A stretch of DNA of 64,000 nucleotides from Desmodesmus armatus. Taxonomy: Eukaryota; Chlorophyta; Chlorophyceae; Sphaeropleales; Scenedesmaceae. The notes beneath the pieces are model-generated. The model made no database searches and was not told the origin of the DNA. It worked only from the letters and a program-made list of their open reading frames with translations. The number at the start of each line of letters is the position of its first letter. The stretch's first letter is position 1. Where the stretch lies: the NCBI GenBank assembly GCA_007449985.2, contig VIIQ02000002.1, forward strand, positions 1,426,001 to 1,490,000, written 5' to 3'. Position numbers and translations under genes: made by a program. This document shows, one piece after another, positions 572-52,922 of the stretch.

Positions 572-3500
572 TCAAACAGGTGCATGCCTGTTCAAGCTCA
601 CTGGAGTATCCTGCACTCCCACAGTCCGGCCCAGCTGCTGCGGCAGCCCAGCAGCTTTCCGCTGCCTCAGCTTCTGCAGCCACAAGCCACCAATCCCAAC
701 AGCAGCCAACAGTCCGAGCACCACCACAGCACTAATCAGGCCGATCATAGCTACACTCATCTTCCCACTGCCGCTGCTCCCTGCAGCAATACCACCCCTG
801 CCAGACCCTGCTCCTGCAGGATCAACACCCGCTGCCATCAACTGCCGCTCCATGTTCCTTACAGCACATGCCAGCACTTTCTCATTGCTGCAAGCCTCAC
901 ACCACTCCGCACTGCTTTTCAGCGCCTGGGGTTCAGCGATCGCCCTAAAATCCTCCAGGGTGCAGCTGCCGGGACCTGCTAAACCCTCGGCAGCATCGCC
1001 AGCCACTGCACAATGCAGCGGCAGCACTTTGTACGCTGCTTTCGGGCCATCTTGGACCACGGCACGTACCACCAGCTGGCCAGAAGGTGCTTTGTGGAGT
1101 TCAAAGACTAGTACGGCAGCGAGGGAGGGAATCTTGGAGGTCCAGATGTGCTGTGTGCGCTGGCTGGCAGGTACTGCTGCCTGCAGGGCTGACAGCACTC
1201 CCAGCTGAGTGTTGTAGTGGGAAGACACCATGCGCAGCTTGTAGTATGGGGCCTGTAAACAGAGACACACGGCAAGCAGGGGTTGGTATAGTGCAGCATA
1301 TGCGGGAAGCTCATTGGTGATCATGCACAAACTGTGGGGAGGCGCTCATGACCGAAGGGCCATTGAGTGGCCAACTGCTCTATAGTGCAGCCCCTCTGCT
1401 GCTCTGCAGCTGTACCAAGGGACCTTGTATCCCAAAGGCTTCGCGTGAGCTGAGTGACATGACCTGTGTGTTGGCACATACCGTGCAATCAGCCGATAGT
1501 GCGCATACGGTCTGTGGCCACTAGTGAAGTCCCTGCAGTCCCGCCAATCCCCTGCAGCACCATGTGTGTGTGTGTGTAGACACAGGGAGTGCAACCAGCC
1601 AATGCAACCATGTGTGTCAGACCCTTGGACACATGTGTCGTACCTACCTGGCTGCCTGTCAGCACGGCTTGTTCAGCAGTGGCCATGCGCTGCAGTATGT
1701 CACCCAGCAGGGCCCCTCCCAGCAGGTTGCCTGTCAGCTCAGGGGCCATCTTGGAGGTCTCCAGCCACATGGCAAGCTGGTTCACCTGTGAACATCACAG
1801 CAACCACACCGCAGCGGGGACATCAACACACCTACTTTGGGGCGCTAGTCAGAAGAGCCTGGCAGGCAGGCACAAATGCTGCACCGTGCATGTATGTGTA
1901 CCCCGAGGTTATGACTGCGCTGCACCCCGTTCAAATCAGAGTTGGTAACCCAGCACAGTGGGCTGCAGTGTGCAAGTGGTTTGACAGATGCCACACACAT
2001 ACATGCATAGCTGAGGCCGACAACATGCACAGTGCACAGTGCAGAAGGCCCTGCTGGCACTAGGAATGACATCTGCAGCAGTGCAAGCGCTTGAGTACAC
2101 TCACAGCTGCAGTGCCGGCTGACGTACCTCTGCAAAGGTTGCGTTGTCCATGGGTGGCATGGGGTTGCCCACGCCGTAAGTGCGCCACACATTGAAGGAG
2201 TCATACACATCCCACCTGCGACACACCAGCAGTAGGCATGACTGCTGCTTTCCACGGCTGTTGCAGTCTGCTGCTGCACAAAGTGTGACAAAGCATGCTG
2301 TGCTGTGGTACGGTGCCACAGGTTGTGCAGGATCTGCTGTAGTGCCGTTGGAGTGCCCTGCCTATGGAGCTCCGTCACCTCCTCTGCCAAGCTCACCAGG
2401 TTGCAAGGGAAGTGTTTAGCTGAGGTGCCATCTGTTGGACCTGCGGCAGGGCAAGAGAACTCTGAGGCTTACCGGGACAGCATACCATGACTACGGTGGC
2501 AGGCGGGGCTCCTAAACCCTGCTGGCACTGGGGTTCACTGCACCGCCGCTGCCGCTCTATTCCTTACAAACGCCCTGGGCCCGTCAACTGGCCCCACCCC
2601 CACCCCTCTGTATCAGTGTACCTTCTGCCTCAGGGCGACAGTGTCTTCCTCCTTCTGCTTGAATGCATCGCTCCGCAGCCAGGCTGCCAGGCGCTGCTGA
2701 TATGCAGGGCATTTGCTGTAGCCCCTGATCAACCAGTCCTCACTGTCTGATGTGCTATACACAGGAACGGCCTGCAAAGCACAGCAAGAAGCCACAGGAG
2801 AGCCGTTTAAGCTCAGTCGACACTTGTATGCGTGTGGGTTACTGCTGTGCAGCTGGATGCCTTGTGCTGGCCAAGCCGCTTGAGGGCACCAGAACAGTCT
2901 GAGCTTGAAGCACTCCGTCTACTTACAGTGAACTGCACATAAGACACCAAGCTGGCGTCACAGCAATGCGATATGTACGCGTGTTGTATGCTGGCTGCAT
3001 GCTAAGGGACCTCACCTGCAGGACCCCGCTGCTGCTGTTGCTTGATGCAGCAGGAAACACGCCTTTCAGGAAGCTCTCTGCGCTCAGGAGGGTGCGGTCC
3101 AGCCCACTGCTTGCTGCAAGTGTATTGTAGTTGTGGAATCCAACATCAGGCTTGTTGTACACCCCATAATGCTCATGCCCTGGCTCTGACAGGCAGGTTG
3201 CTGGGCGGCTGGCTGCGCAGGTGGGTTGACTGATGTACCGCTGGTGGAAGGCAACACCTGGCAGTTGCACAACAGGGTGCCATATGACATGACTCTTCAT
3301 GCATGAAGAGGGCCGCTGATCAGGGTGCAAAGGCACTGCTGAGAATGGTTAGCAGGAAGGTAGAGCTCAGGTTGACCAGATGCACACTCTCCAGCGCACC
3401 TGCTTCATAGCCCATCTGCCTCCCAGCTGGCAGTATGGTGGGACCCCCTGTTGCGTCGCTCTCTGTCAGCAATGCGGACTTGGGCAGCACGTTGCGAGCT

Positions 3501-23363: not shown

Positions 23364-26300
23364 TCAAACATGCTGGATGCTTGACCCAGCCAAGGGCGCC
23401 GCACCAACGGCATCAACTGGGCCAACCTCCCCGCCTGCTGCTGCTGCATGCCGCCTGCCTAACAGGCCACCTCGATGGTGTGGGGCTAGCGGCATCCCAT
23501 CCAGCACTGCTGCACCAGACAACACGCTCTCCTGGCCCCCAGCACCACCTGCAGACTGGGTGCTGTCATCAGCGCCGGCAACATCCACTGCTGTGTGATG
23601 CAGTAACGCCTGGCGCTCATGCCCGTCACGGTGGTGGTGATGGTGGTGGTGCCGGGCGACCCCATGCCCAGGCGCCCCGTCCCCACCACCCCCTGGCTGC
23701 TGCTGCTGGTGGTGGCCGTCTTTGCCGTACACTGTGCTCTGCCACAGGATCACCATGTCCAGTGAGATGGTGCCCAGGCTGCCGATGATCCAGGGCAGCT
23801 GCTCCTGCAGCTCCTGCAGGGTGAAGGTGCGGAACAGGATGCTGGTCCCCGTGCACAGGTTGGCACACACAGCCATGATGAACATGACCAGCGCCAGCCC
23901 CTCACTGGATTTGCGGCTGTAGTTCTTGTGGATCTGGCTCATACGGCTGCATAGGTACAGCACACTCGCCACATACCCAAGCCCAGTACCCACGATGAAC
24001 AACCAGTCACGCTCTGCGCCCGGCATGCCCACCCGTCCCTGCCTAGCCCAGCCATGCTGCTTGCTGGAGCTACTACTGCTGCTGTCTATGCTGCCCACAT
24101 CGCCGCCAGCCTTGGGACTGCTGCCCAGCTGCGACCCTGGTTCCAAGTGTATACTGCTGCCCTGCTGCTGCTGCTGCCACCCCGCCTGCATTGCCCTGGC
24201 TGCCGCTGCGGCATCGCTGCCGCCCTGCTGTGATGGTGGTTGCAGCGCTGGCTCACCACCAGACCAGCTAACAGGCACCATGCCCCTCGCTGTACTGGCT
24301 GGCAGCAGGGACACCATGCCCATGCACACCAGCACAGCAACTGCCACCACCGACCTGACGCCACCCCAATGCAAGTCACCAAACGGCACCCGAATGACAG
24401 GTGCGCCCCATGTAAAGCCGGGTGCCGCCGCCGCCGCTGCTGCACAGCTGGCAGCGGGTAGGGTGGCTGCTGCTGCTGCTGCTGCATCGCAGGGGCCTCT
24501 CGACGGGCTGCCATTCTTGCTGAGCCGCTTGAGACCCTTGCTGCTGCTGTGCCCGCTTTCGGTGCTGCAGTCGCTGTCGCTGCTGCTGTCAGTGTCACTG
24601 CTTTGACCACTTACAGGCGCGGCGCCTGTGCCCCGGGCTTGCTGCCCAGGCTGCGCAGTGGCTCGCGTGTCCATGCTGCTGCGCCGTGCTGCTTCATGCA
24701 GACCAGTGGAAGCCCCAGCCGCCACTGGCTGTTCAGAGCCCTGCAGCAGCAACAGCAGCAGAGACATGGCAGGGTCATCAATGCGCTTGGTGACGACGCT
24801 GCACAGCATAAATGCCGCCCGTTCACAGCAAAACCAACATTCGAAGGCTTGTGCAGTAATGCAGCGCGTCCAGGAGACCGGTGCGGTACTGAAACAATCC
24901 TGCATTTGCAAGGATGTGCTGTGTCAGCAGCAGAGCAGCATGACATGCAACATGCCAGCTAGCCAGCAGGCGCAGCGCCCGGCCATAGCGCATGACGGAC
25001 TTGCACACAGCCTGCAGCAGACCTGCGGTTTTGCGCTAGTATGTCAGGGCGCTAGTATCACACGTCAAGGCACTCGATATTCAACTTGATTGATGCCGCA
25101 TCCACACTCACCAGGCGCTGCTGCTGCTGCTGGCTGGCAGTCTGGTGCGGCACACGCCTGCGCTCCTGCTGCGCTGGCCACGCCGACGACTGCCCAAGAT
25201 CCTGCTGCTGCTGGTCCAGGCCACCCAGGGGTGGCGCTCCTGCTGCGTCGCCTGCTGCTGCCTGCGGGCCCAGGAGGGCGTCACGCTCCCGGCTCCTGCT
25301 GCTGTTGTGGTTGTGATGGTGGTGATGCCTGCGGTGGTGGCGGCGGCGTGCCTGCAGCTTGAGCACCTGCTCGCGCCTGCGCTGCAGGGCCCCGTAGTAG
25401 ATGAACTGCATCATCATGAACATGTCTGCTATCACAAAGTACCTGTGAGGGTGATGGCAACAGCAGGCAGGCAGACAGGCATGACAAGCACAAGAAGACC
25501 GCGGTTGAGGGCGCCGTGTTCAGTGAGGTTGAGACAGGGGAAGGTCCGATACAGCGCTGCCTGTTCTTGCAGTCATGCAGGATGGCTGGAACCAGCTGCA
25601 CACTAGCATCAGCGCCGCAGCCTGACGGTGCCTTGTAATGTTGTCGAGTGAAACAAGGACCAAGGATGCAAACAAGTGTGGTCCAGCTGCTGCATTCTCA
25701 CATGGCAGTGTACACTGTCGTGGGCAGCTGCTGGCCCTGCAGCAATGCGCCAATGAGATTGAAGGTGTCTCCCTGCAGCGCAGCGGGGGACAGTGGTGTT
25801 CAGGGTGCAGGGGAAGCGTCAGACCACCCTCAAGCTGCTGCTGGTGCATGTTGCTGTCACCCTTGCAAGGCAACTGATGCAGGACAGACACAGCCAGGCT
25901 CTGCTGACAGCACATAGCATCATGTGTCATGGTGCTTGCCGGATGCATACTTACCAGCAGCCATTGTGCCAGGAACCAGGGACTGAGGGCTTCTGCGCTT
26001 TTGGTCTTGTAGTTGCGATAGTACTGGGGTATCTGCAGGTTGTGCAACGTCAGCACAAACACTGTAAGCTTTACTCTGAACACGTGCAAACACCCTGGCA
26101 GCACTGCATGCCACAGCTGCAATGTGACACCACAAGCTGCTGGCAGTTGCAGTTGCTCTTGCTGCATTGGCAACACTGTTGAGTACATGCCTCACCTGTG
26201 CCACAACCCAGAATACAATCGCTGCCAGACCTAGACAGAAACCAACGTAGTCCCTCACACTGCACAGCACAAACACACATGCATAGAGGGTGGGTGCGCC

Positions 26301-38294: not shown

Positions 38295-38822
38295 TTACAG
38301 CCCTAAACCATTGTTGAGGCTGGCTCCGTTTTGGGCATTTAGGTCGCGGCGCCCTAGACATAGCTACAACTTGCTCAAGACTTCATTGTCAGCTTCTTCC
38401 GATAATAGTTGTCAATACTTTTCGCTCCTCTCCACATGCACGAGCACAAGGCTGTACAAGGTCATGCAGAACTGGCAACCAACAAGCATCTTAGGCTTCT
38501 TTGAAATGCTCTGATGGCACTGAAGAGCGCTGGCCAGCATGGAAGCTAGCGGGCGGCATGCTGGAGTGTGGGGCAGGGATGCAGCTGCAAGTGCAGTCCG
38601 CGAAGGCAACAGCCAGCAGGAGCATTTGCGCGTGCTGTAAAAGGTGAGTACGGTTTATCTAAGTATGTTGAATGCTTCAGAAGCTGTGGGACTGGCTTTT
38701 GCTGAGAACCTTCAAATGCAGGGGCAGCTGCTGTCAACAACGTTGTCATACCGGACAGCCATGGTTCCTTGTGCAGCAGATGTCCTTGTACCTTCTGCTG
38801 TAGGACTTGTGTGCGCCTCCGC

Positions 38823-40520
38823 AGGTGCTGCCTTGCCGACGGGCACCCTTTTCTTGACTTGCAGGTGCTGCTGTATACTTGTGTCAAAGGCTGTTTGCAG
38901 GTGCTGCCATGCCGACGGGCACCCCTTGTCTTCGACTGCAGGTGCTGCCCTATACTTGTGTCAGAGAGTGTTCGCAGGTGCTGCCATGCCGACGGGCACC
39001 CTTCCCTTTGATTTGCAGGTGCTGCCCTACACTTGTGTCAAGGGTGTTCGCAGGTGCTGCCATGCCGACGGGCACCCTTTCCTTGCACTGCAGGTGCTGC
39101 CCTATACTTGTGTCAGAGGGTGTTCGCAGGTGCTGCCATGCCGACGGGCACCCTTTCCTTGCACTGCAGGTGCTGCCCTATACTTGTGGCAGAGGGTGTT
39201 CGCAGGTGCTGCCATGCCGACGGGCACCCTTTCCTTGAACTGCAGGTGCTGCCCTATACTTGTGTCAGAGGGTGTTCGCAGGTGCTGCCATGCCGACGGG
39301 CACCCTTTCCTTGAATTGCAGGTGCTGCCCTATACTTGTGTCAGAGGGTGTTCGCAGGTGCTGCCATGCCGACGGGCACCCCTTTTCCCTTGACTTGCAG
39401 GTGCTGTCTTCTACTTGTGTCAGAGGGTGTTCGCAGGTGCTGCCATGCCGACGGGCACCCTTTCCTTGAACTGCAGGTGCTGCCCTATACTTGTGTCGGG
39501 AGGTGTTCGCAGGTGCTGCCATGCCGACGGGCACCCTTTCCTTGAACTGCAGGTGCTGCCCTATACTTGTGTCGGGAGGTGTTCGCAGGTGCTGCCATGC
39601 CGACGGGCACCCTTTCCTTGAATTGCAGGTGCTGCCCTATACTTGTGTCGGAGGGTGTTCGCAGGTGCTGCCATGCCGACGGGCACCCTTTCCTTGAACT
39701 GCAGGTGCTGCCCTATACTTGTGTCGGGAGGTGTTCGCAGGTGCTGCCATGCCGACGGGCACCCTTTCCTTGAATTGCAGGTGCTGCCCTATACTTGTGT
39801 CGGAGGGTGTTCGCAGGTGCTGCCATGCCGACGGGCACCCTTTCCTTGAACTGCAGGTGCTGCCCTATACTTGTGTCAAGGATGTTCGCAGGTGCTGCCA
39901 TGCCGACGGGCACCCTTTCCTTGAACTGCAGGTGCTGCCCTATACTTGTGTCGGGAGGTGTTCGCAGGTGCTGCCATGCCGACGGGCACCCTTTCCTTGC
40001 ACTGCAGGTGCTGCCCTATACTTGTGTCAGAGGGTGTTCGCAGGTGCTGCCATGCCGACGGGCCCCCTTTTCCCTTGACTTGCAGGTGCTGTCTTATACT
40101 TGTGTCAAGGATGTTCGCAGGTGCTGCCATGCCGACGGGCACCCTTTCCTTGAACTGCAGGTGCTGCCCTATACTTGTGTCAGAGGGTGTTCGCAGGTGC
40201 TGCCATGCCGACGGGCACCCTTTCCTTGAACTGCAGGTGCTGCCCTATAATTGTGTCAGAGGGTGTTCGCAGGTGCTGCCATGCCGACGGGCACCCTTTC
40301 CTTGCACTGCAGGTGCTGCCCTATACTTGTGTCAGAGGGTGTTCGCAGGTGCTGCCATGCCGACGGGCACTTTTCCCCCTTGAATTGCAGGTGCTGCCGG
40401 GTATGCTTGTCTTTTTCTGCAGGTGCTGCCTTGTCGACGGGCACCCTTTCACCTTGACTTGCAGGTGCTGCCATATACTGTGTGAGGTCATGTTCGCAGG
40501 TGCTGCCATGCCGACGGGCG
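38823..40520 (+). repeat. Minisatellite of about 23 copies of a 76-bp unit
   Basis: A 76-bp unit containing CAGGTGCTGCCATGCCGACG and CAGGTGCTGCCCTATACTTG repeats head to tail, with spacing 76 (occasionally 73-79). Copies from about 39060 to 40360 are nearly identical; both ends are degenerate. No stop codon occurs in long stretches of several frames on both strands. Because 76 is not a multiple of three, the frame rotates each unit, so the apparent 249- and 311-codon frames are by-products. Each unit has two CAG|GT junctions that look like fused acceptor and donor sites. Confidence 0.95.
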
Positions 40521-40800
40521 CCTTCCCTCTCCCCCAGTTTGGTGCCTTGCAGGTGCAAGAGCTGGCGTTTGTACTTGTCTGCAGGTGTGCCGACGTGCGC
40601 CTTCCCTCTCCCCCAGTTTGGTGCCTTGCAGGTGCAAGAGCTGGCGTTTGTACTTGTCTGCAGGTGTGCCGACGGGCGCCTTCCCTCTCCCCCAGTTTGG
40701 TGCCTTGCAGGTGCAAGAGCTGGCGTTTGTACTTGTCTGCAGGTGTGCCGACGGGCGCCTCCCCTCTCCCCCAGTTTGGTGCCTTGCAGGTGCATGACCA
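40521..40800 (+). repeat. Second array: four copies of a 79-bp unit
   Basis: The landmark CCCCCAGTTTGGTGCC recurs at 40531, 40610, 40689 and 40768, an exact 79-base period. Units share GCAGGT, GCCGACGGGC and TACTTGTCTGCAGG motifs with the neighbouring 76-bp array, so the two arrays are probably related by divergence and re-amplification. Confidence 0.92.
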
Positions 40801-44700: not shown

Positions 44701-46412
44701 GGGGTTTGCTGGAGACAGGCAGAGAAGCGTAGCCACCGCAGCGCCTGGCAAGCGCAGCACTCCTGTGCCAGGCGCTGCGGTCGCTGCGCTTCTCTGCCTG
44801 CCTCCATCATAGCGCATCATGCCGGCACCCGCGTCGTGACTGACACCTGGTCCTGACATGTTGGTGAGCAGGTAGCAAACCAGGGTACAGACTACTGTCT
44901 GCTCACCTGCGTGCGGGTCACACAGGCCTCTAGCCACCCCCGCAACCATCGCCAGGCCCTGAGGCCCCAGGATCTCCAGCAGCCAGGCCATCCTGAGCAC
45001 AATGACAGCACATCACAGGGGCCGTCTGGTGGACACGACGCATGCTGTGCTGTGCATGCACGAGTCCGTATGAAGCATGTGTGTGCATGGCCGAAACAAG
45101 GTGCCTGGATAGCAAGGATGCCTTGATAGTAGGGAGCACACTTGCAGTAGCATGCGCAAAGTGCTTGACCAAACATGCACGCTGTTCATGGATCAGGGAG
45201 TATAGACATGTGACAAGGGCTGTGTGAGAACAGGAGAAGGATACACACCTGGGCAGGACAGTCCCCAGGTAACAGGGCTCCAGCAGCGGTACCCTCACAG
45301 CTCCTGCCAGCTGCTCGCGCTGCACCGCATCTACACGCACATCCCGCTGCGCCGCTGCTGCCATCCAGTTGTGCACCACCGCTAGCACGGTGTTCTCAGA
45401 CACTGCTGCTGTTCGCTCATCGCGCAGCAGGGCCAGCAGGGCGGGCAGCGGTAAGCTGGATACTTGTGAGAGTTGCGTAGGGCAGCTCAGCACAGCTTCC
45501 ATATCGCCAAGCTGCTGCTGTAGCTGGTCTAGGCAGTGATGCAGGAGAGGGCCAAAGCCAGGGGTGGCCACAGTGCCAGCACCAGCGCCAGCAGCAGCCT
45601 GAGCGCCAGCGGCAGGGGCTGCAGCTGCGGGTGCAACGGGCGCAGTTGATGTTGTGTCCGTCATGGGTGCCAGCAGCATGTAGGCCAGGCCCAGCGCGTC
45701 TGGCTGCAGCTGGTGGCAACCCATCAGCGCGCTGTAGCATGCTGTCTGCAGGTCTGTCACGCCAAAGGTGTGTGCCAAGTGCAGCATGTGCACCAGGAGG
45801 CACTGCTGGCCTGGGGTGGGGTCTGGCAAGTCTCCTGCAACAGGGCAGCAATGGGGTGTTGTCTAGTGACACTGCATCGATCAAAGCTGGCGCTTTAGTA
45901 ATTTGATGATGGCTTCACGAAAGTAGCAAGCACAGGCGGGCACTGTCTGCCCCTGATGACACTGACAGAGGTCCCCACCCTTACCTGTGTAGACAAAGCG
46001 TACCAGCGCACATGCTGCCTGCACCTGGTCAGGACGGACGTCCAGATGGATGGAGGGCCTGCCACCAAGGCCCTGCTGCTGCTCAATCTCGTCCCTGAAC
46101 ACATGGCTCACTGCGCACGCAGCAGCAAATTTGCACTTTAAAGTGTTGGCACCGCAGGAGCCCACATCATTTGAAGGCCTGTTGTGCAGCCGGAAAGGCT
46201 GTGGTGACAGAATGACTGAGCTTGAAACACTATTCTTTCCAGGCAGATGTGCAAGCGGGATTGGACAGTTGCAGCAGCTGCTCACCATTGGACAGCACAA
46301 TGCCATGGCCTGGCAAGCGCTGCTTCACGTCTCCATCTATCCGGATCAGTAGTGAGCAGTCTGAGAGCTTGTCGTTCTGGTAGAAAGCAGCAAAGTCAAA
46401 CCGTGGCTGCAT
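41798..46412 (-). CDS. BTB-BACK protein with split MATH-like C-terminus
   Basis: Six exons: 46412-46286, 46110-45985, 45834-45249, 44992-44907, 44469-42221, 41953-41798; 1109 residues in phase. BTB domain, residues 1-100: FYQNDKLSDCSLLIRIDGDV, GHGIVLSN, VSHVFRDEI, LVRFVYTG. A BACK region follows (HMLHLAHTFGVTDLQ, ENTVLAVVHNWMAAA). From about residue 664, FKLRSPEAQFAGYNWRLVLYF begins a MATH/TRAF-like segment. About 350 residues of Ala/Gly/Gln/Ser low-complexity sequence with acidic patches follow, then GSWLRSRACDTGFTSFF and the LQPGGVLQLRGNIW end. BTB-BACK(-MATH) proteins are usually substrate adaptors of cullin-3 E3 ligases; that role is inferred. A basic KRRRR cluster could be a nuclear localisation signal. 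The last junction (Q|GS) was chosen because the phase fits; an alternative small exon in the 41954-42220 intron was rejected. Confidence 0.8.
44711..44805. repeat. Inverted repeat, 40-nt arms, 15-nt loop
   Basis: Left arm 44711-44750 and right arm 44766-44805 are reverse complements with three mismatches, separated by 15 bases. It lies in the intron between exons 4 and 5 of the BTB-BACK gene. Confidence 0.95.
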
Positions 46413-46662
46413 TGTGCTGGGCCTTCACAACATGAGATCACAGTTGCTGCTGGGGTGGAGTGCGTATGCAGGTGTTGGGGTGGGTTCGAGTCTGTCAGAG
46501 ATCGATGATACCACTCTGCACTGCTCATCCGGCTAGTAACAGCTTTACGTCCTTGACAGGTGGCAGTTGAAGATTTGAATTGAAGTCGGACAGATCCCTG
46601 GTGAAACTGATTGGTGTGTGCTATCTGAAGTGTGTCTGTGTGACTTACACTTGAGCTTTTCC

Positions 46663-47063: not shown

Positions 47064-50000
47064 TCAGTTCATGCGCAGCAGCACCCGTGTTGCCCCCGGT
47101 GCCTCCACCGCATGCTCCACTGCCTCCTGCCACTCCTCAGCAAAGCTGTACTCAGTGAAGTCGTGGGCCAGCAGCCCTGACCCCACCAGCTTGCCCAAAG
47201 AGCCCAGCAGGGCCCTCAGGCCCTCAGCTCCCTTGGGGGTGTCGGCAGCTAGGGCCTTGCGCACGTTGAACCCTGACACCTGCAAACCCCTGTGGACGTC
47301 AAGCAGAAAGGGATGCAGCCGGCGGTTGGCCTGTGCAGTCAGCAATTGCAGCCCTGCTGGTAGCTTGTCGATAAGACGCAAGCGGCAGCATGCAACACTG
47401 TAACACAGGGTCCATGTAAAACACATGTGAGCAAGGCTGATGCGATAGATTGCTCCACATTGCTTTTCACACCCACCTGAACACCCATGCCTGCCAGGGG
47501 AATGCAGGGCCCTTCCCGCCCAAGCATCCATACACTACCAGCCTACCACCCTGCAGGCAAGCCACCCGGCAGCAACAGGCACATGGCGAAACCTGTCGAG
47601 CTTGCATGCAGATGCCCAGGTGAAGCGCTTTGGCACCACTGCTGTTGCTGCTGCCGCTGCATGAGTGATGAAGTGGCTGACACTGTTAGCAACATGCCGG
47701 ACACATGCTGGCCTTTTACAGGCAGAGCCAACCCCATGCATGTTTAGTGTCACACTTGGTGTGGCAGCCGGCCCCCCTTCCACATGACTCCACACAGTGC
47801 ATGTGTGCACACATGCATGGGTGTGACGCCGCATGCCTTCCAGTGTCAAGGAACATGTGTTGAACCCACTCACCTGCTCCAGTGCATCTGCCAGGCGTGT
47901 CGCTGACTCCCCACCCACTGCATCCAGCGCCAGCTTAGGCTTGCCAAAGAACCGCTCAGACTGCAGTTGGGTCTGCACACAACACATGCAGCAACACACA
48001 CATGCAACATCACACCGAGGGTGTCGCAAAGCTCAGCAATGTTTCAGTCACATCACAATGTGCACAAGCACTGACTCTGAGAACGGGATGTTCCTTCTAC
48101 GCTGGTAGAGATATTTGCCAGATACCAGCAGTGCTGATGTCACGGCGTCCTGTTCCCGCATACATTCAGTAGAGTCGGTCATGTGGCACCGTGACGCTGC
48201 GGCTATCAGCCCAACCAGTACATTGACAGTGCCCCCCCCCCCCCCCCATGGCAGGTCTACCCACTGGGTGATACACTGCCTCACTTTCCCACACAGGCCA
48301 ACCCACTGGGTGATGGCATGCTGTCTCACCCCTCACGCCAACCCACATAAGCACAACAACATACAACCCCCCCTCCCTGCGCATTCCACCACCCCTGCCA
48401 CCCCACCTTGATGGATCCCTCATCCTTCAGGACCAGTGTGGCCCCTAAGGCCTTCAGCTGATCAGCTACAGCACAGAACCTGGCATCACTCTGGGCTTGT
48501 GTACCGCCGCCGCTGCCGCTGCCAGCAGCATGTGCCTTGCAGCGCAGCACAGCCACGGCCCTCAGCTTGAGCAGCTTGCACAGCTGCAGCATGGTCCTGC
48601 CCACAATGGAGTTGGCGGCGTTCAGGATGACACAGTCACCAGGCTGCATGGAAGGGGTCAGGGGCAGGGACAAGGGCAAGGGAGGGCAAGGTGGGCCAAA
48701 GAGTCAGCTTGCTGGCAAGCTGAGTAGCCGCTGGATGACATGATGTCATCGCCTGCTGTAGGGGTGGTCATCCCTCAGTACGTGCATCATGTGAACGTGG
48801 TGTGGTCGCAAATGTGAAGCATCTACCGCCTGCAGATCACATGTCATGTCATGCGCTGCCTCATCTGGCGATCAACACCACAATTGACGCAACATACGTC
48901 ATGCCAGTAGCATTTCAAGACAGCACCAAGCAACATTGGGCTCCCCCCCCCCAGTTGCAACCAGTGGTTCATGCCATGGGTGAAGTTCACCTTGAGTCCG
49001 CTGTGTGCCTCCAGCAGTTTGCATGCCAGGGCCAGCTCCTTGTGGATGGCCAGGTACTCAAGGGGTAGGGGCAGCTCATCTGACAGGGTAGCAGGCTCAG
49101 GCCCTGCAGCAGCACCAGCAACACCCAGTTAATGCCAAGTCATCTGCCAGGTTGCTGCTGCTAGCTAGTAGCCCTGTTTCCTTCTCTGTGTGGCCACACA
49201 TGGGCTTGGCAAAGATGAGTAAAGCTGTGGAGCAGTGGCTGAGATGATGCAAGGTATGCGCACGGGCTAGGTTGGTTTCCGGGATCAGTCTGGATACCCG
49301 CCCCACTGGCACTCATGAGTGAGCAACGGCCAATGCTGGTATCTGGGGGCCTCCCACTGCCCAGTGAGTGAGGCTGAACCGGGTACATGCTAAACAGCAT
49401 AAACAAACAGAATCAAGGCCTAGCCTGCCAGCATCCCCACCCCCCTGCACTGCCAGTGCATTCACCTTGTGACTGGACGACATCTCCAGTGCTGCTGTCC
49501 AGGGATGCCAGCTTGCCCACCCTGACCAGCTGCTTTGCCTTCACCACTGATGCCTGTGTGAAAGTTCCCAGCAGGGGTGTTGTTGGCAGCACCACATCAC
49601 CCTCTACAAGGTCCTTCACACCTGGACCAACCTGCATGCAGCAACACACACGACACAGCAGCAATGACATCAATAAGGCTCGTCCAGGTGGAGACATGGA
49701 GACCCCTCATGTTGGCCCTGTTTCAGTGGTTGCCTCCCCTGCCAAGGAAGAAAACATCAAACCACATCGAATCAAAGAACCCTCCCACCCTGTTCGAGCT
49801 GAACGCTTTGTAGGTGGAAGTGCTAGGACAAGGGGGGCAGGGGGGCAAGTGAACGTGTGGGAGTGCAAGCTGTATGCGCCACCTCGCAATCCGCAACAGC
49901 CATGGTGGCTGTCAGTTTGCATCCAACATCAATTCAAGGTGTTTCAGCTGACAATGTACAGATGCCTGAGGCTGTTAGCTCACCTTGAGCACCACCCCTA

Positions 50001-52922
50001 CTCCCTCATGTCCTACCACCTTTCAGTGTGCAACCGCCATTGTCACTGTCAGTTTGCGTCAAAGAGAAGGGTGTCCCCTCCTTTCCCTCCCTCCCAGCTT
50101 GCACTCCCAACGTACTGTACTAAAGCCTGAGGCTGTTGACTCACCTTGAGCACCACCCCCACTCCCTCATGTCCTGCCACAAAGGGAGGTTCCTTGCTCT
50201 GGTCGTCGTAGAGCCCCCCTAGCCGCATGGTGTACACGTCAGCAGGGGTGACGGGCACTACCCGCATCTCAACATACACCTGCAGGGCATGATGCAGGCG
50301 GCAACAGTACACCCTGGCACCAATGGTTGAACAGCCACGCAGGTGTTGGGAAAGACCATGGTATACGGACAGCCAAGTTGAGCGGGTATGGCCCTTACCC
50401 TCAAAATACCCTCAAGTAAAAACTATTATCACCTCGTCTTCTGTCCCCTCCGCCTCCCAGGCTCTGGTCCTGCTGCCACCTGCCAACTGTCAGCCCTCAT
50501 CTTGCCCTCCCCGCTCCCTCAACCGTACTCCCCTGCCCTCCCTGCCTCTCGGCAGAGCTGAGTTCTGCAGGCCCAGCTGCTTCTTACTAGCACTGTGCAG
50601 TGACACATCATGTCAGCACTTATGGAAGGTATACCGCCTCACCTGGCCCCATTCCAGCTCAGCCGGCAGGGTGTGTGCCACCAGCTGCACCTGCTCCTGG
50701 GGCCTGCCTTCGTCGGCTAACTGTCAGCCCCTCATCTTGCCCTCCCCGCTCCCTCCCCTGCCCTCCCCTGCCTCTCGGCAAAGCTGAGTTCTGCAGGCCC
50801 AGCCGCTTCTTACTAGCACTGTACAGTGAGTGACATGTCACCACTTGTTGCCTCACCTGGCCCCACTCCAGCTCAGCAGGCAGGGTGTGTGCAACCAGCT
50901 GCACCTGATCCTGAGGCCTGCCGGGCCCCTTGCACACTGCAGCAAGCACTGAGCGTGCTGGCAGGGGCACACCCTCATAGCTGGACTTCACAACACCAAA
51001 CTGCTCTGCAATGGTGTCAGCTGTGTAGATAGAGGTGCCCCCTGAGCCCCTGGCACGCATCCAGGCCTGCAAGGCGGGAAGCCGGCAGCAGGCACATTCC
51101 ATGTGGGTGTATGCATGCTCAGCGGTTGCTCAAACTGCGTGGAATGACGGTTGCGTTGCTCTGGGGATACTGTCGAATTGGCTGGTTGCTTCTGCGAGCT
51201 CAAAGCAGGTTGCATTTGCGTCACACATTTGCGCGCATGCACAGGCCTGTGCAACTTCAACTTGCTGGCCCACCGGGTGTCATGCACCAACTACTGGTGT
51301 AGCCAGGTACCACTGCCCTGCCGTCTGCCCTCAATCATGGAGGCAAATTGTTATTGCCACTGGCAGAAGACAGTGTGGCTCAAGAGTAGGGATGGGCCAA
51401 ACCGTATGTGGCTGCTTTTCACATACGTATATATACGTATGTTACATACGTATCCGTATATATACTAGTATGTCAAGCGTATGTTTTCAGGGGGTCGTCA
51501 GGGAAGTCACTGTTAAGACTGCAGGCTGGCGCCATGCCTTTGATTATCATGTAATATAACTTAATAAAGTGTTATTCTAACTATTGTAATGTTTCCGCGG
51601 TCAAGCGCGCGCCCACAGCACCACATTTCCACCCTCCCGGTGGGTCGACGGTTGATGCGAGTCCCGAAGTTGGGGTTGCGGACTAATGCATTCAAAGAGT
51701 ATGGCAAAATAAAGCTGCCAAATCATTCAAACGTAATTCAAAGAAGCATTCCTTACGTTATGCAGCTGAAATCTGCAGATTCTGAAAACCGTAACTGCCA
51801 CTGTAACTGTCGGCCATCTGGGAGCACATACGTATGTTATACGTATATATACGCATACGGTGAAAATACGTACGTACATACGCATACGCTTTGGCCCATC
51901 CCTACTCAAGAGGTATGGCTTAAGGTGTGGGGTGCGGGGTCATGGGGTCTGCCACTCACCTCAAACCCTGCAGTGTGGCTCTGCGTCCGAGTTTCTGTCT
52001 GGCGGATGGCGATCTGGTCAGCCACAGATGCTGCCAAGCTGCTGGCTGCAGCTGTCTGGCGTGACACCTTGTCAGCAAAACTGCCTGCACAGCGATCAAT
52101 CCATGGGTGGTGAACAGGACTTAATCCATTTGGGTCGGCCCGGGTTGTCGGGCACAGGTGGCCACTTACAACATTGCCAACAACTGCTAGCACAACAGAG
52201 CTACCTGCTAGCCTGGCAGATCTACTACAGATGAGCGTTTGCAGTTAGCGCCTGCACATGCCATTACAGCACTGTTGCAGGGCCTGCTCAGCTGTTGCTC
52301 AACTGGCCTTGGTGAGAGCGAAAAACAGGGGAAGACACGTTGCACTGCAGCCAGGCCAAGAGCTTACCTCCTGCAAAACCTTCCACAAACTCCTCCCCCG
52401 CGCTCTTGCGGATCTCCCCAGTAGCGTCATAGTGGGCCCTCTGCACAGCCGCGAAGCATAAAGCAAGGACAGCAACGTCTCACAGGTAAGCCATCAAGCA
52501 AGAGTGCCCTACAGGAAGCTGAGTGCTTGCAATTTCCCTGGAAGATATACTAGTAGCCCGACCTACCTTGTCTTCGTCAGACAGCACATTGTAGGCTGTT
52601 ACCAGTCTGTGGAATTCATCTGCATCTCCTCCTTTGTCTGGATGTGCACGGGTCCTGAGCGTCCTGAAGGCCCGCTTGATCTGCAAATTACACGCAACAA
52701 GGACAATCATGCAATGTAATGGGGTGTTGAATGGTGTTGTGGGCCGCACACACCCATCTGATGAAACTCCTACATGCAGCAGATGGCACTGTTGTTCTCT
52801 GGCACTCAGCAAGCTTTGCGAGGCTCAGATAGGTATAAGCAATGTTACTGGTAATACTTCGAGATAGTCACCTCTGCTTGCGAGGCACCGCGCTCCACAC
52901 CCAGCGCTCCATACAGATCCAT
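47064..52922 (-). CDS. MECR: J-domain fused to mitochondrial-type 2-enoyl thioester reductase
   Basis: Twelve exons: 52922-52872, 52680-52567, 52440-52368, 52084-51960, 51066-50857, 50279-50145, 49631-49466, 49103-48991, 48643-48407, 47972-47874, 47550-47477, 47289-47064; 540 residues, all phases matching. Residues 1-65 are a J-domain: YGALGVERGASQAE, HPD at 30-32, AYNVLSDEDKRAHYD. A linker with EEFVEGFAGGSF and HTAGFEAWMRARG follows. From about 150 comes an MDR-family enoyl reductase: PVTPADVY and GGLY (Y215, at the position of the catalytic tyrosine of MECR/Etr1), AGHEGVG, nucleotide-binding NAANSIVG (337-344), LVVYGCLGGKGPAFPWQAWVF, LQVSGFNVRK. MECR reduces trans-2-enoyl-ACP with NADPH in mitochondrial fatty-acid synthesis, which feeds lipoate. 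J-domains recruit Hsp70. No obvious presequence precedes the J-domain. Either half might be a separate transcript, but no stop or start separates them. Confidence 0.85.
48232..48247 (+). repeat. C16 homopolymer in an intron
   Basis: Sixteen consecutive C in the intron between exons 9 and 10 of the J-domain/enoyl-reductase gene. Similar G runs occur at 35852-35863 (senescence-gene intron) and 61262-61274 (TAP38 intron). Confidence 0.95.
49964..50185. repeat. 161-bp-offset duplication copying the 3' end of exon 6
   Basis: Sequence from GCCTGAGGCTGTT through the end of exon 6 (GTGGTGCTCAAGGTGAG on the minus strand) appears at 50125-50185 as the real exon and donor. It appears again at 49964-50024 inside the next intron. 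The copy retains a usable-looking donor but lacks the upstream part of the exon. Confidence 0.85.
50485..50930. repeat. Tandem duplication of about 234 bp copying the 3' end of exon 5
   Basis: Two copies (about 50485-50718 and 50719-50930) share intron sequence plus the last roughly 65 bases of exon 5 (VQLVAHTLPAELEWGQ and its GTGAGG donor). The copy at 50719-50930 includes the real exon end; the one at 50641-50708 is a partial exon relic in the intron. Confidence 0.9.
51387..51904. mobile_element. hAT-type MITE, 518 bp, in an intron
   Basis: Terminal inverted repeats begin TAGGGATGGGCCAAA and match over about 22 bases with one mismatch. The element is flanked by identical 8-bp duplications CTCAAGAG at 51379-51386 and 51905-51912. 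The 8-bp duplication and the TAGGGATGGGC end are typical of the hAT superfamily. The interior has AT-rich ATACGTATATA motifs near both ends and no transposase frame, so it is non-autonomous. It sits in the intron between exons 4 and 5 of the J-domain/enoyl-reductase gene. Confidence 0.93.

What the first reader, a model, noticed from the sequence alone, without database searches (positions are those of the whole stretch)
47064..52922. In-frame fusion of a J-domain to mitochondrial-type 2-enoyl thioester reductase
Four exons encoding a J-domain with intact HPD and a linker run, with matching splice phase and no stop or alternative start, into eight exons of an MECR/Etr1-like reductase that keeps the GGLY tyrosine, NAANSIVG and YGCLGG motifs. 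A chaperone-recruiting domain on a lipid-synthesis enzyme suggests Hsp70-coupled folding, import or regulation of mitochondrial fatty-acid synthesis. I believe related architectures may exist in other algae but could not search.
Basis: partly seen in the sequence, partly recalled or inferred. Interest (0 to 1): 0.85.

Follow-up and report, generated by a model that had tools for sequence, protein, structure and literature searches.

The report
Ancient algal chaperone–reductase fusion protein
The gene really does join a chaperone-recruiting J-domain to a relative of the mitochondrial enoyl reductase, and the same fusion occurs in green algae, a haptophyte and dinoflagellates, but it looks like a non-mitochondrial sister of the fat-making enzyme rather than that enzyme itself.

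Summary
Twelve minus-strand exons (52922→47064, 11 of 11 introns GT-AG) encode one 540-aa protein: J-domain with HPD, linker, MECR-like reductase. The same order occurs in many chlorophytes, a probable Mesostigma record, the haptophyte Prymnesium (plus SAM), Vitrella and dinoflagellates (often plus an esterase). A family linker motif, cut by intron 4 here, is continuous in relatives, which argues strongly against two genes.

The mitochondrial-synthesis reading is weakened. The same genome has a separate, unfused MECR gene with a presequence-like start (its integrity past exon 8 is not shown). In 78 of 99 long relatives the HPD lies at residue 25-45, leaving little room for a presequence. Fused and canonical reductases split with 100% support in an unrooted tree. 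The acyl-tunnel Asn-Pro (118 of 120 canonical) is absent from all 131 green fused-group sequences; 121 have Arg-Glu. The G-x-Y catalytic loop is not found in 69 of 123 green sequences or in 41 dinoflagellate-type ones.

Best reading: an ancient, probably cytosolic Hsp70 co-chaperone whose second half is a repurposed, still constrained enoyl-reductase fold. Function is untested. Open-access literature searches showed no description.

The parts
52872..52922 (-). exon 1, start codon ATG at 52922..52920; first part of J-domain (aa 1-17)
   Evidence: CCGCCATGG context seen
52567..52680 (-). exon 2, middle of J-domain with HPD (aa 18-55)
   Evidence: Pfam DnaJ 2-60
52368..52440 (-). exon 3, end of J-domain and first linker helix (aa 56-80)
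   Evidence: the model of the relative P0001 has a helix at 73-84
51960..52084 (-). exon 4, linker ending in SHTAGFE (aa 80-121)
   Evidence: motif conserved in relatives
50857..51066 (-). exon 5, AWMRARG completes the linker motif, then start of reductase domain (aa 122-191)
50145..50279 (-). exon 6, reductase with GGLY loop and GHEGVG (aa 192-236)
49466..49631 (-). exon 7, reductase (aa 237-292)
48991..49103 (-). exon 8, reductase; KE where canonical MECRs have the Asn-Pro motif (aa 292-329)
48407..48643 (-). exon 9, cofactor loop NAANSIVG (aa 330-408)
47874..47972 (-). exon 10, reductase (aa 409-441)
47477..47550 (-). exon 11, YGCLGG (aa 442-466)
47064..47289 (-). exon 12, C-terminus LLRMN and stop (aa 466-540)

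Best explanation
One gene encodes a class-C-type J-domain protein whose C-terminal half is an ancient paralogue of mitochondrial enoyl reductase (MECR). Shown: the single-chain architecture in sequence, its conservation, its separation from canonical MECR, and a canonical MECR gene in the same genome. Inferred: the protein works outside mitochondria, most likely in the cytosol. Its HPD-bearing J-domain recruits and stimulates Hsp70, and the MECR-fold half picks the client or ligand (an acyl-thioester, another enone, or a partner protein). In lineages that keep the tyrosine loop, including this alga, that half may still reduce a substrate with NADPH, but with an altered acyl pocket. In dinoflagellates it is probably a non-catalytic binding module.
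For: HPD in 94 of 96 relatives with residues at that place; the 2 exceptions look like misaligned N-terminal stretches (120 proteins aligned). Linker motif in 140 of 183 fused-group proteins, fragments included, and 0 of 120 canonical MECRs. Canonical MECR gene in the same genome, and canonical records in nine named species that also have a fused record. Fused and canonical reductases split at 100% ultrafast bootstrap, 50 sequences, 274 columns, unrooted. Acyl-tunnel Asn-Pro in 118 of 120 canonical and in 0 of 131 green fused-group sequences, where Arg-Glu stands in 121. Little presequence space: HPD at residue 25-45 in 78 of 99. The reductase half is nevertheless constrained: mean pairwise identity 0.57, against 0.59 for canonical MECR of the same 9 algae, 36 pairs. 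Model of Tetradesmus P0001 (pLDDT 85.7, pTM 0.83): J-domain and most of the reductase confident, linker residues about 91-140 and an insert at 289-313 low; best PDB match human MECR.
Against: No expression, localisation, Hsp70 or enzyme data for any member was found. The G-x-Y loop and cofactor loop are kept in this alga, and G-x-Y is kept in 54 of 123 green sequences; the constraint fits an active enzyme equally well. Lack of a presequence was judged from missing space; charge and hydrophobic-moment scores did not separate the two N-termini (moments 0.40 fused, 0.36 canonical), and internal targeting signals cannot be excluded. Eleven of the 99 long sequences have HPD beyond residue 45; three of these look like retained introns by eye, eight have N-terminal extensions of uncertain meaning. 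The tree does not by itself show the fused set to be monophyletic.
Confidence: 0.5

Rival explanations
1. It is mainly an active NADPH-dependent enoyl (or enone) reductase outside mitochondria; the J-domain only helps its own folding, stability or placement.
For: GGLY and NAANSIVG kept here; G-x-Y in 54 of 123 green sequences with that loop, in 32 of 59 that also show the HPD; reductase half about as constrained as canonical MECR.
Against: Asn-Pro of the acyl tunnel replaced by a charged pair in nearly all greens; tyrosine loop gone in other groups while HPD stays.
Confidence: 0.28
2. One reading: it is the mitochondrial fatty-acid-synthesis enoyl reductase, coupled to Hsp70 for import or regulation.
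For: Best structural and sequence relatives are human MECR and Candida Etr1. The C781 canonical gene shows an apparent frame break after exon 8, so its integrity is not proven.
Against: Separate canonical MECR gene in the same genome with presequence-like N-terminus; no presequence space on the fusion; changed acyl-tunnel motif.
Confidence: 0.12
3. Plastid or other organelle protein reached by an internal or unrecognised signal.
For: J-domain fusions to other modules are known in green plants (DnaJ-Fer, titled a chloroplast protein in PMC3564930; listing).
Against: HPD at residue 25-45 in 78 of 99 long members, dinoflagellate-type ones among them, whose plastid proteins need long leaders (recalled).
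Confidence: 0.07
4. Two neighbouring genes merged by a wrong gene model.
For: Intron 4 is long (893 nt) and holds a transposon-like insert.
Against: Linker motif split by intron 4 is continuous in relatives; fused records in many genomes, and P0101, P0107, P0108 and P0150 carry an MMETSP (transcriptome) source.
Confidence: 0.01

Closest known systems
Human MECR / Candida and yeast Etr1 (2-enoyl thioester reductases of mitochondrial FAS)
   Same: MDR fold, cofactor loop, a G-x-Y loop in this alga; best matches by sequence and fold
   Different: J-domain and linker in front; no presequence space; Asn-Pro tunnel motif replaced; separate side of the tree
Class C J-domain proteins (DNAJC type)
   Same: HPD J-domain joined to an unrelated C-terminal part; no DnaJ_C or zinc-finger match
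   Different: An enoyl-reductase partner was not seen in titles or abstract starts of our architecture searches
DnaJ-Fer (J-domain plus ferredoxin) of Viridiplantae and Thaumarchaeota
   Same: J-domain fused to a redox-protein module in the green lineage (PMC3564930, title and abstract start)
   Different: Different partner fold; no sequence comparison made
Cytoplasmic cMECR isoform of human cells
   Same: A MECR protein with a role outside mitochondria that is independent of mtFAS (PMC9815647, abstract read)
   Different: Made by alternative splicing; no J-domain mentioned in the abstract
NDUEG3, a chain of the Euglena respiratory supercomplex
   Same: MECR-like chain in a non-MECR setting (8iuf_E3: E=4.3e-44 to profile A1; rank 11)
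   Different: Only the reductase part matches; whether it has a J-domain was not examined beyond the matches
Arabidopsis J-like protein At1g08640
   Same: A J-like protein linked to fatty acid composition (PMC3196505, title and abstract start)
   Different: Title concerns chloroplast lipids; not compared by sequence

Membership tests
J-domain proteins (Hsp40), class C | J-domain with HPD | tested here: met
   Pfam DnaJ 62.2 bits, cut-off 27.8; HPD in exon 2
J-domain proteins (Hsp40), class C | lacks the zinc-finger and C-terminal domains of classes A and B | tested here: met
   No such Pfam match up to E=1; absence of a G/F region judged by eye only
J-domain proteins (Hsp40), class C | stimulates an Hsp70 | not testable with these tools
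   needs biochemistry
MECR/Etr1 mitochondrial enoyl reductase | MDR fold closest to MECR/Etr1 | tested here: met
   fold of the relative P0001
MECR/Etr1 mitochondrial enoyl reductase | catalytic tyrosine (human Y94; PMC9899272 and PMC2774161, passages read) | tested here: inconclusive
   GGLY present, but one residue further from the conserved Glu than in human MECR and not in the same alignment column
MECR/Etr1 mitochondrial enoyl reductase | Asn-Pro next to G165 in the acyl tunnel | tested here: not met
   KE here; Asn-Pro in 118 of 120 canonical
MECR/Etr1 mitochondrial enoyl reductase | mitochondrial presequence | tested here: not met
   protein begins MDLYGALGVERG at the J-domain; no room judged by eye, scores uninformative
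MECR/Etr1 mitochondrial enoyl reductase | falls in the canonical MECR clade | tested here: not met
   canonical group 100% without it, unrooted tree
MECR/Etr1 mitochondrial enoyl reductase | enoyl-ACP/CoA reductase activity | not testable with these tools
   needs enzyme assay

The most novel reading that the evidence does not exclude
A deep, undescribed family of Hsp70 co-chaperones in which an enoyl-reductase paralogue became the sensing or client-binding half: Hsp70 recruitment gated by NADPH or acyl-thioester binding. Catalysis was lost in dinoflagellates, haptophytes and some green lineages while the J-domain stayed, and SAM or esterase domains were added.
Probability: 0.3. Interest if true: 0.82.

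Novelty: new variant of a known kind. Interest (0 to 1): 0.62.

Why it matters
It is a protein of many green algae and of at least two other algal groups, filed in databases as 'enoyl-[acyl-carrier-protein] reductase', 'J domain-containing protein' or 'molecular chaperone', and it is probably none of these in the simple sense. If the reductase half gates Hsp70, it would link cellular redox or acyl status directly to protein folding. It also warns that algal 'MECR' annotations mix two paralogues, which matters for work that overexpresses 'MECR' to raise lipids.

Tried and rejected
Two-gene model: rejected (linker motif split by intron 4; relatives). Sole mtFAS enzyme: set back by the canonical gene on C781. 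Upstream presequence exon: the frame upstream of the ATG is open to 53018 but holds no ATG, and close relatives start at about the same place; not excluded by RNA. Haematococcus 'MECR' as functional evidence for the fusion: PMC10067919 (discussion section and passages read) names its gene by 50% similarity to a Chlorella sorokiniana MECR. C. sorokiniana has both paralogues; the canonical pair is 49.5% identical, the fused pair 45% and 42% in two pieces, so the cloned gene was more likely canonical. Pfam ADH_zinc_N scan of the genome (31 matches) was uninformative: it did not list even the window gene. Charge and moment scores did not discriminate. Literature: 10 of 10 searches used (open-access PMC only); eight aimed at the architecture. 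Of those eight, four returned no paper, one returned a single irrelevant one (11), 14 gave one, 42 gave 53 (20 listed) and 66 gave 18, seen as titles and abstract starts only. Linker against PDB: no match up to E=1. Fused monophyly: under midpoint rooting the root falls inside the fused set (long dinoflagellate branch) and the haptophyte group lies beside canonical with 78% support, so the tree does not show it; single origin rests on the shared order and linker motif.

Limits: the groups 'green' (131), 'haptophyte-type' (10) and 'dinoflagellate-type' (41) were cut by hit number and architecture; many members are unnamed metagenome proteins, near-duplicates or fragments. Only 59 of the 131 green ones show an HPD in their first 130 residues; the other 72 were placed with the fused group by reductase similarity. 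Counts are of sequences, not of species or events. P0073 and P0064 were kept out of the groups, and the stray or partial proteins P0079 and P0103 were counted in none of them. A first count gave Asn-Pro as 119 of 120 per column; counted jointly it is 118.

Full report
WHAT IS THERE. On the minus strand, 12 exons from 52922 to 47064 splice to a 1623-nt open frame, 540 aa, with GT-AG at 11 of 11 introns and matching phases. Pfam finds DnaJ at residues 2-60 (E=5e-17), ADH_N at 190-273 and ADH_zinc_N at 390-477, all above their cut-offs. The best solved relatives are human MECR structures, then Candida Etr1. The linker (about 63-156) has no Pfam match up to E=1 and no PDB match up to E=1.

IT IS CONSERVED. 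A protein search returned 153 hits; the best 120 were listed. Tetradesmus obliquus P0001 is 65% identical over 99% of the query. Named records with J and reductase domains come from Volvox, Pleodorina, Gonium, Chlamydomonas eustigma, Haematococcus, Raphidocelis, Monoraphidium, Prototheca, Auxenochlorella, Micractinium, Chlorella sorokiniana, Myrmecia, Chloropicon, Pseudoscourfieldia and a Pedinophyceae strain, among others. Further away are Vitrella brassicaformis and a set of 41 dinoflagellate-type proteins, named ones being Symbiodinium, Polarella and Prorocentrum; Vitrella and 27 of the 41 carry a precomputed esterase domain (PF02230). A second search with a reductase profile (335 hits, 120 listed) added Prymnesium parvum (J + reductase + SAM) and a record coded Mesvir1, which I read from memory as the streptophyte alga Mesostigma viride. 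Its tree position among prasinophyte-like sequences leaves transfer or contamination open. Land plants and animals did not appear in the two lists; that is not proof of absence.

ONE GENE, NOT TWO. Exon 4 ends SHTAGFE and exon 5 begins AWMRARG. Together they form the motif SHxAGFExW[ML]RxR. A loose pattern of it is found in 140 of 183 fused-group proteins: 97 of 131 green, 8 of 10 haptophyte-type, 34 of 41 dinoflagellate-type, and Vitrella. It is found in 0 of 120 canonical MECRs. The 7 dinoflagellate misses differ at the first residue. Of the 34 green misses 27 show no HPD near the start; 7 do and were not examined singly. Intron 4 thus lies inside a conserved motif. The shared linker also argues for one origin of the fusion.

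A SEPARATE CANONICAL MECR. With the window's reductase as query the own genome shows only this locus (9 matches). With human MECR as query it gives 17 matches up to E=10; the strongest is another MDR gene on C45 (E=4.5e-10, 38%), others are polyketide-synthase-like frames on C25, and among them are three exons in order on contig C781 (E=1.8e-8, 1.4e-6, 0.32; 64%, 43%, 53% identity). Candida Etr1 reaches the same place only weakly (E=0.14, 0.67, 3.0). The first eight exons there splice to MQSLLSTKHQACTKLAGAFLSQAGKHVAAAMSS..., a presequence-like start, then GKY, GHEGVA and SINP, with no J-domain. After exon 8 the frame appears to break; I did not model further, so integrity of that gene is not shown. 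It is 31% identical to the fused reductase. A search with it (1220 hits, 120 listed) gave canonical MECR records from nine named species that also have a fused record: Pleodorina starrii, Gonium pectorale, C. eustigma, C. sorokiniana, Micractinium sp. CCAP 211/92, Myrmecia bisecta, Haematococcus lacustris, Monoraphidium minutum and Raphidocelis subcapitata, besides land plants and animals. None of the 120 has the linker motif; one HPD occurs by chance outside any J-domain.

HOW THE TWO DIFFER. In a tree of 50 sequences and 274 columns the canonical group is separated from all fused sequences with 100% ultrafast bootstrap. The tree has no outgroup. Human residues Y94 (catalytic), E107 and G165 (centre of the acyl cavity) are taken from passages of PMC9899272 and PMC2774161. 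Canonical proteins keep Y94 in 119 of 120 and Asn-Pro beside G165 in 118 of 120. Among 131 green fused-group sequences Asn-Pro was found in none; a pattern count gives Arg-Glu in 121, Lys-Glu in 2, other pairs in 2 and no call in 6; the window protein has Lys-Glu. Asp stands for E107 in 117 of 131, while the window protein keeps Glu. G-x-Y is found in 54 of 123 green sequences with that loop covered and not in 69, among them Chloropicon, Mesvir1 and many near-identical unnamed proteins; 8 lacked the loop. Of the 59 green sequences that show the HPD, 32 have G-x-Y. Haptophyte-type proteins have Phe in the Y94 column in 10 of 10, dinoflagellate-type a gap in 41 of 41. HPD is present in 94 of 96 sequences with residues at that place. 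A bulky charge near G165 would be expected to shorten or block the cavity, by analogy with the G165Q variant of PMC9899272, which handled long chains poorly; this is inference.

LOCATION. Of 99 long proteins starting with Met and having HPD within 130 residues, 78 have it at residue 25-45, leaving little before the J-domain; 10 have it earlier (cut J-domains), 11 later, three of these apparently by retained introns. Charge and hydrophobic moment did not separate the two N-termini, so the lack of a presequence rests on the missing space.

IS THE REDUCTASE HALF DECAYING? Not in these greens. Across 9 algae with both paralogues (the window alga, seven species above, and Auxenochlorella, where the fused record is from a hybrid strain; 36 pairs) mean identity is 0.57 for the fused reductase, 0.59 for the canonical one, 0.62 for the J-domain and 0.52 for the linker. 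So the half is functional in some way.

MODEL. AlphaFold2 on Tetradesmus P0001 with 42 sequences gives pLDDT 85.7 and pTM 0.83; J-domain and most of the reductase are confident, residues about 91-140 and 289-313 are not. Foldseek puts human MECR first (TM by target 0.89). The window's own spliced protein was not modelled.

INTERPRETATION. The steady part across the groups is the J-domain plus linker; the catalytic loop is kept in some and lost in others. I therefore favour an Hsp70 co-chaperone with a MECR-fold client- or ligand-binding half, probably cytosolic, possibly still an enzyme in this alga. Precedents for MECR folds off the metabolic path are the human cytoplasmic isoform (PMC9815647, abstract) and, by similarity, the Euglena chain NDUEG3. 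A J-domain fused to a redox module is known in green plants as DnaJ-Fer (PMC3564930, title and abstract start). Ten searches of the open-access library, eight of them aimed at the architecture, showed no account of it in titles, abstract starts or hit counts; subscription papers were not searched and the bodies of listed papers were not opened for this. The architecture is visible in database domain tables, so what is new is its recognition and its separation from canonical MECR.

Noticed in passing
window 51387-51904 (intron 4): Transposon-like insert of 518 bp with 15-bp perfect terminal inverted repeats and an 8-bp target duplication (CTCAAGAG at 51379-51386 and 51905-51912): looks like a non-autonomous hAT-type element (class name recalled).
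   Followed up: partly
window 50466-50922 and 49879-50180: Tandem duplications that copy the 3' end of exon 5 with its donor site (93% over 73 nt) and the 3' end of exon 6 (89% over 65 nt) into the following introns; could give alternative splicing.
   Followed up: no
window 38820-40794: Tandem array of 76-79-bp units, about 22 copies at 91% plus 3.6 copies at 98%.
   Followed up: no
window 44930-46424 (minus): Next gene downstream looks like a BTB/BACK protein: BACK at 20.2 bits, just below cut-off 20.9; BTB by eye only.
   Followed up: no
window 23364-24923 (minus): Open frame with a PQ-loop repeat (Pfam E=6e-12).
   Followed up: no
own genome G000 contig C25, about 93-144 kb (L018, L019, L021-L025, L030): Eight reductase-domain matches at 6-11 kb spacing, most in long open frames: probably a giant modular polyketide synthase (inference).
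   Followed up: no
own genome G000 C781, after exon 8 of the canonical MECR (L067 about 3050-3117, minus): Apparent frame break relative to other MECRs; assembly error or real, left as it is.
   Followed up: no
C-termini of green fused proteins: C-terminal tail of the type D-[IVL]-G-x-x-Y/H in 79 of 131 green fused-group sequences, absent from the window protein and its Tetradesmus relative.
   Followed up: no
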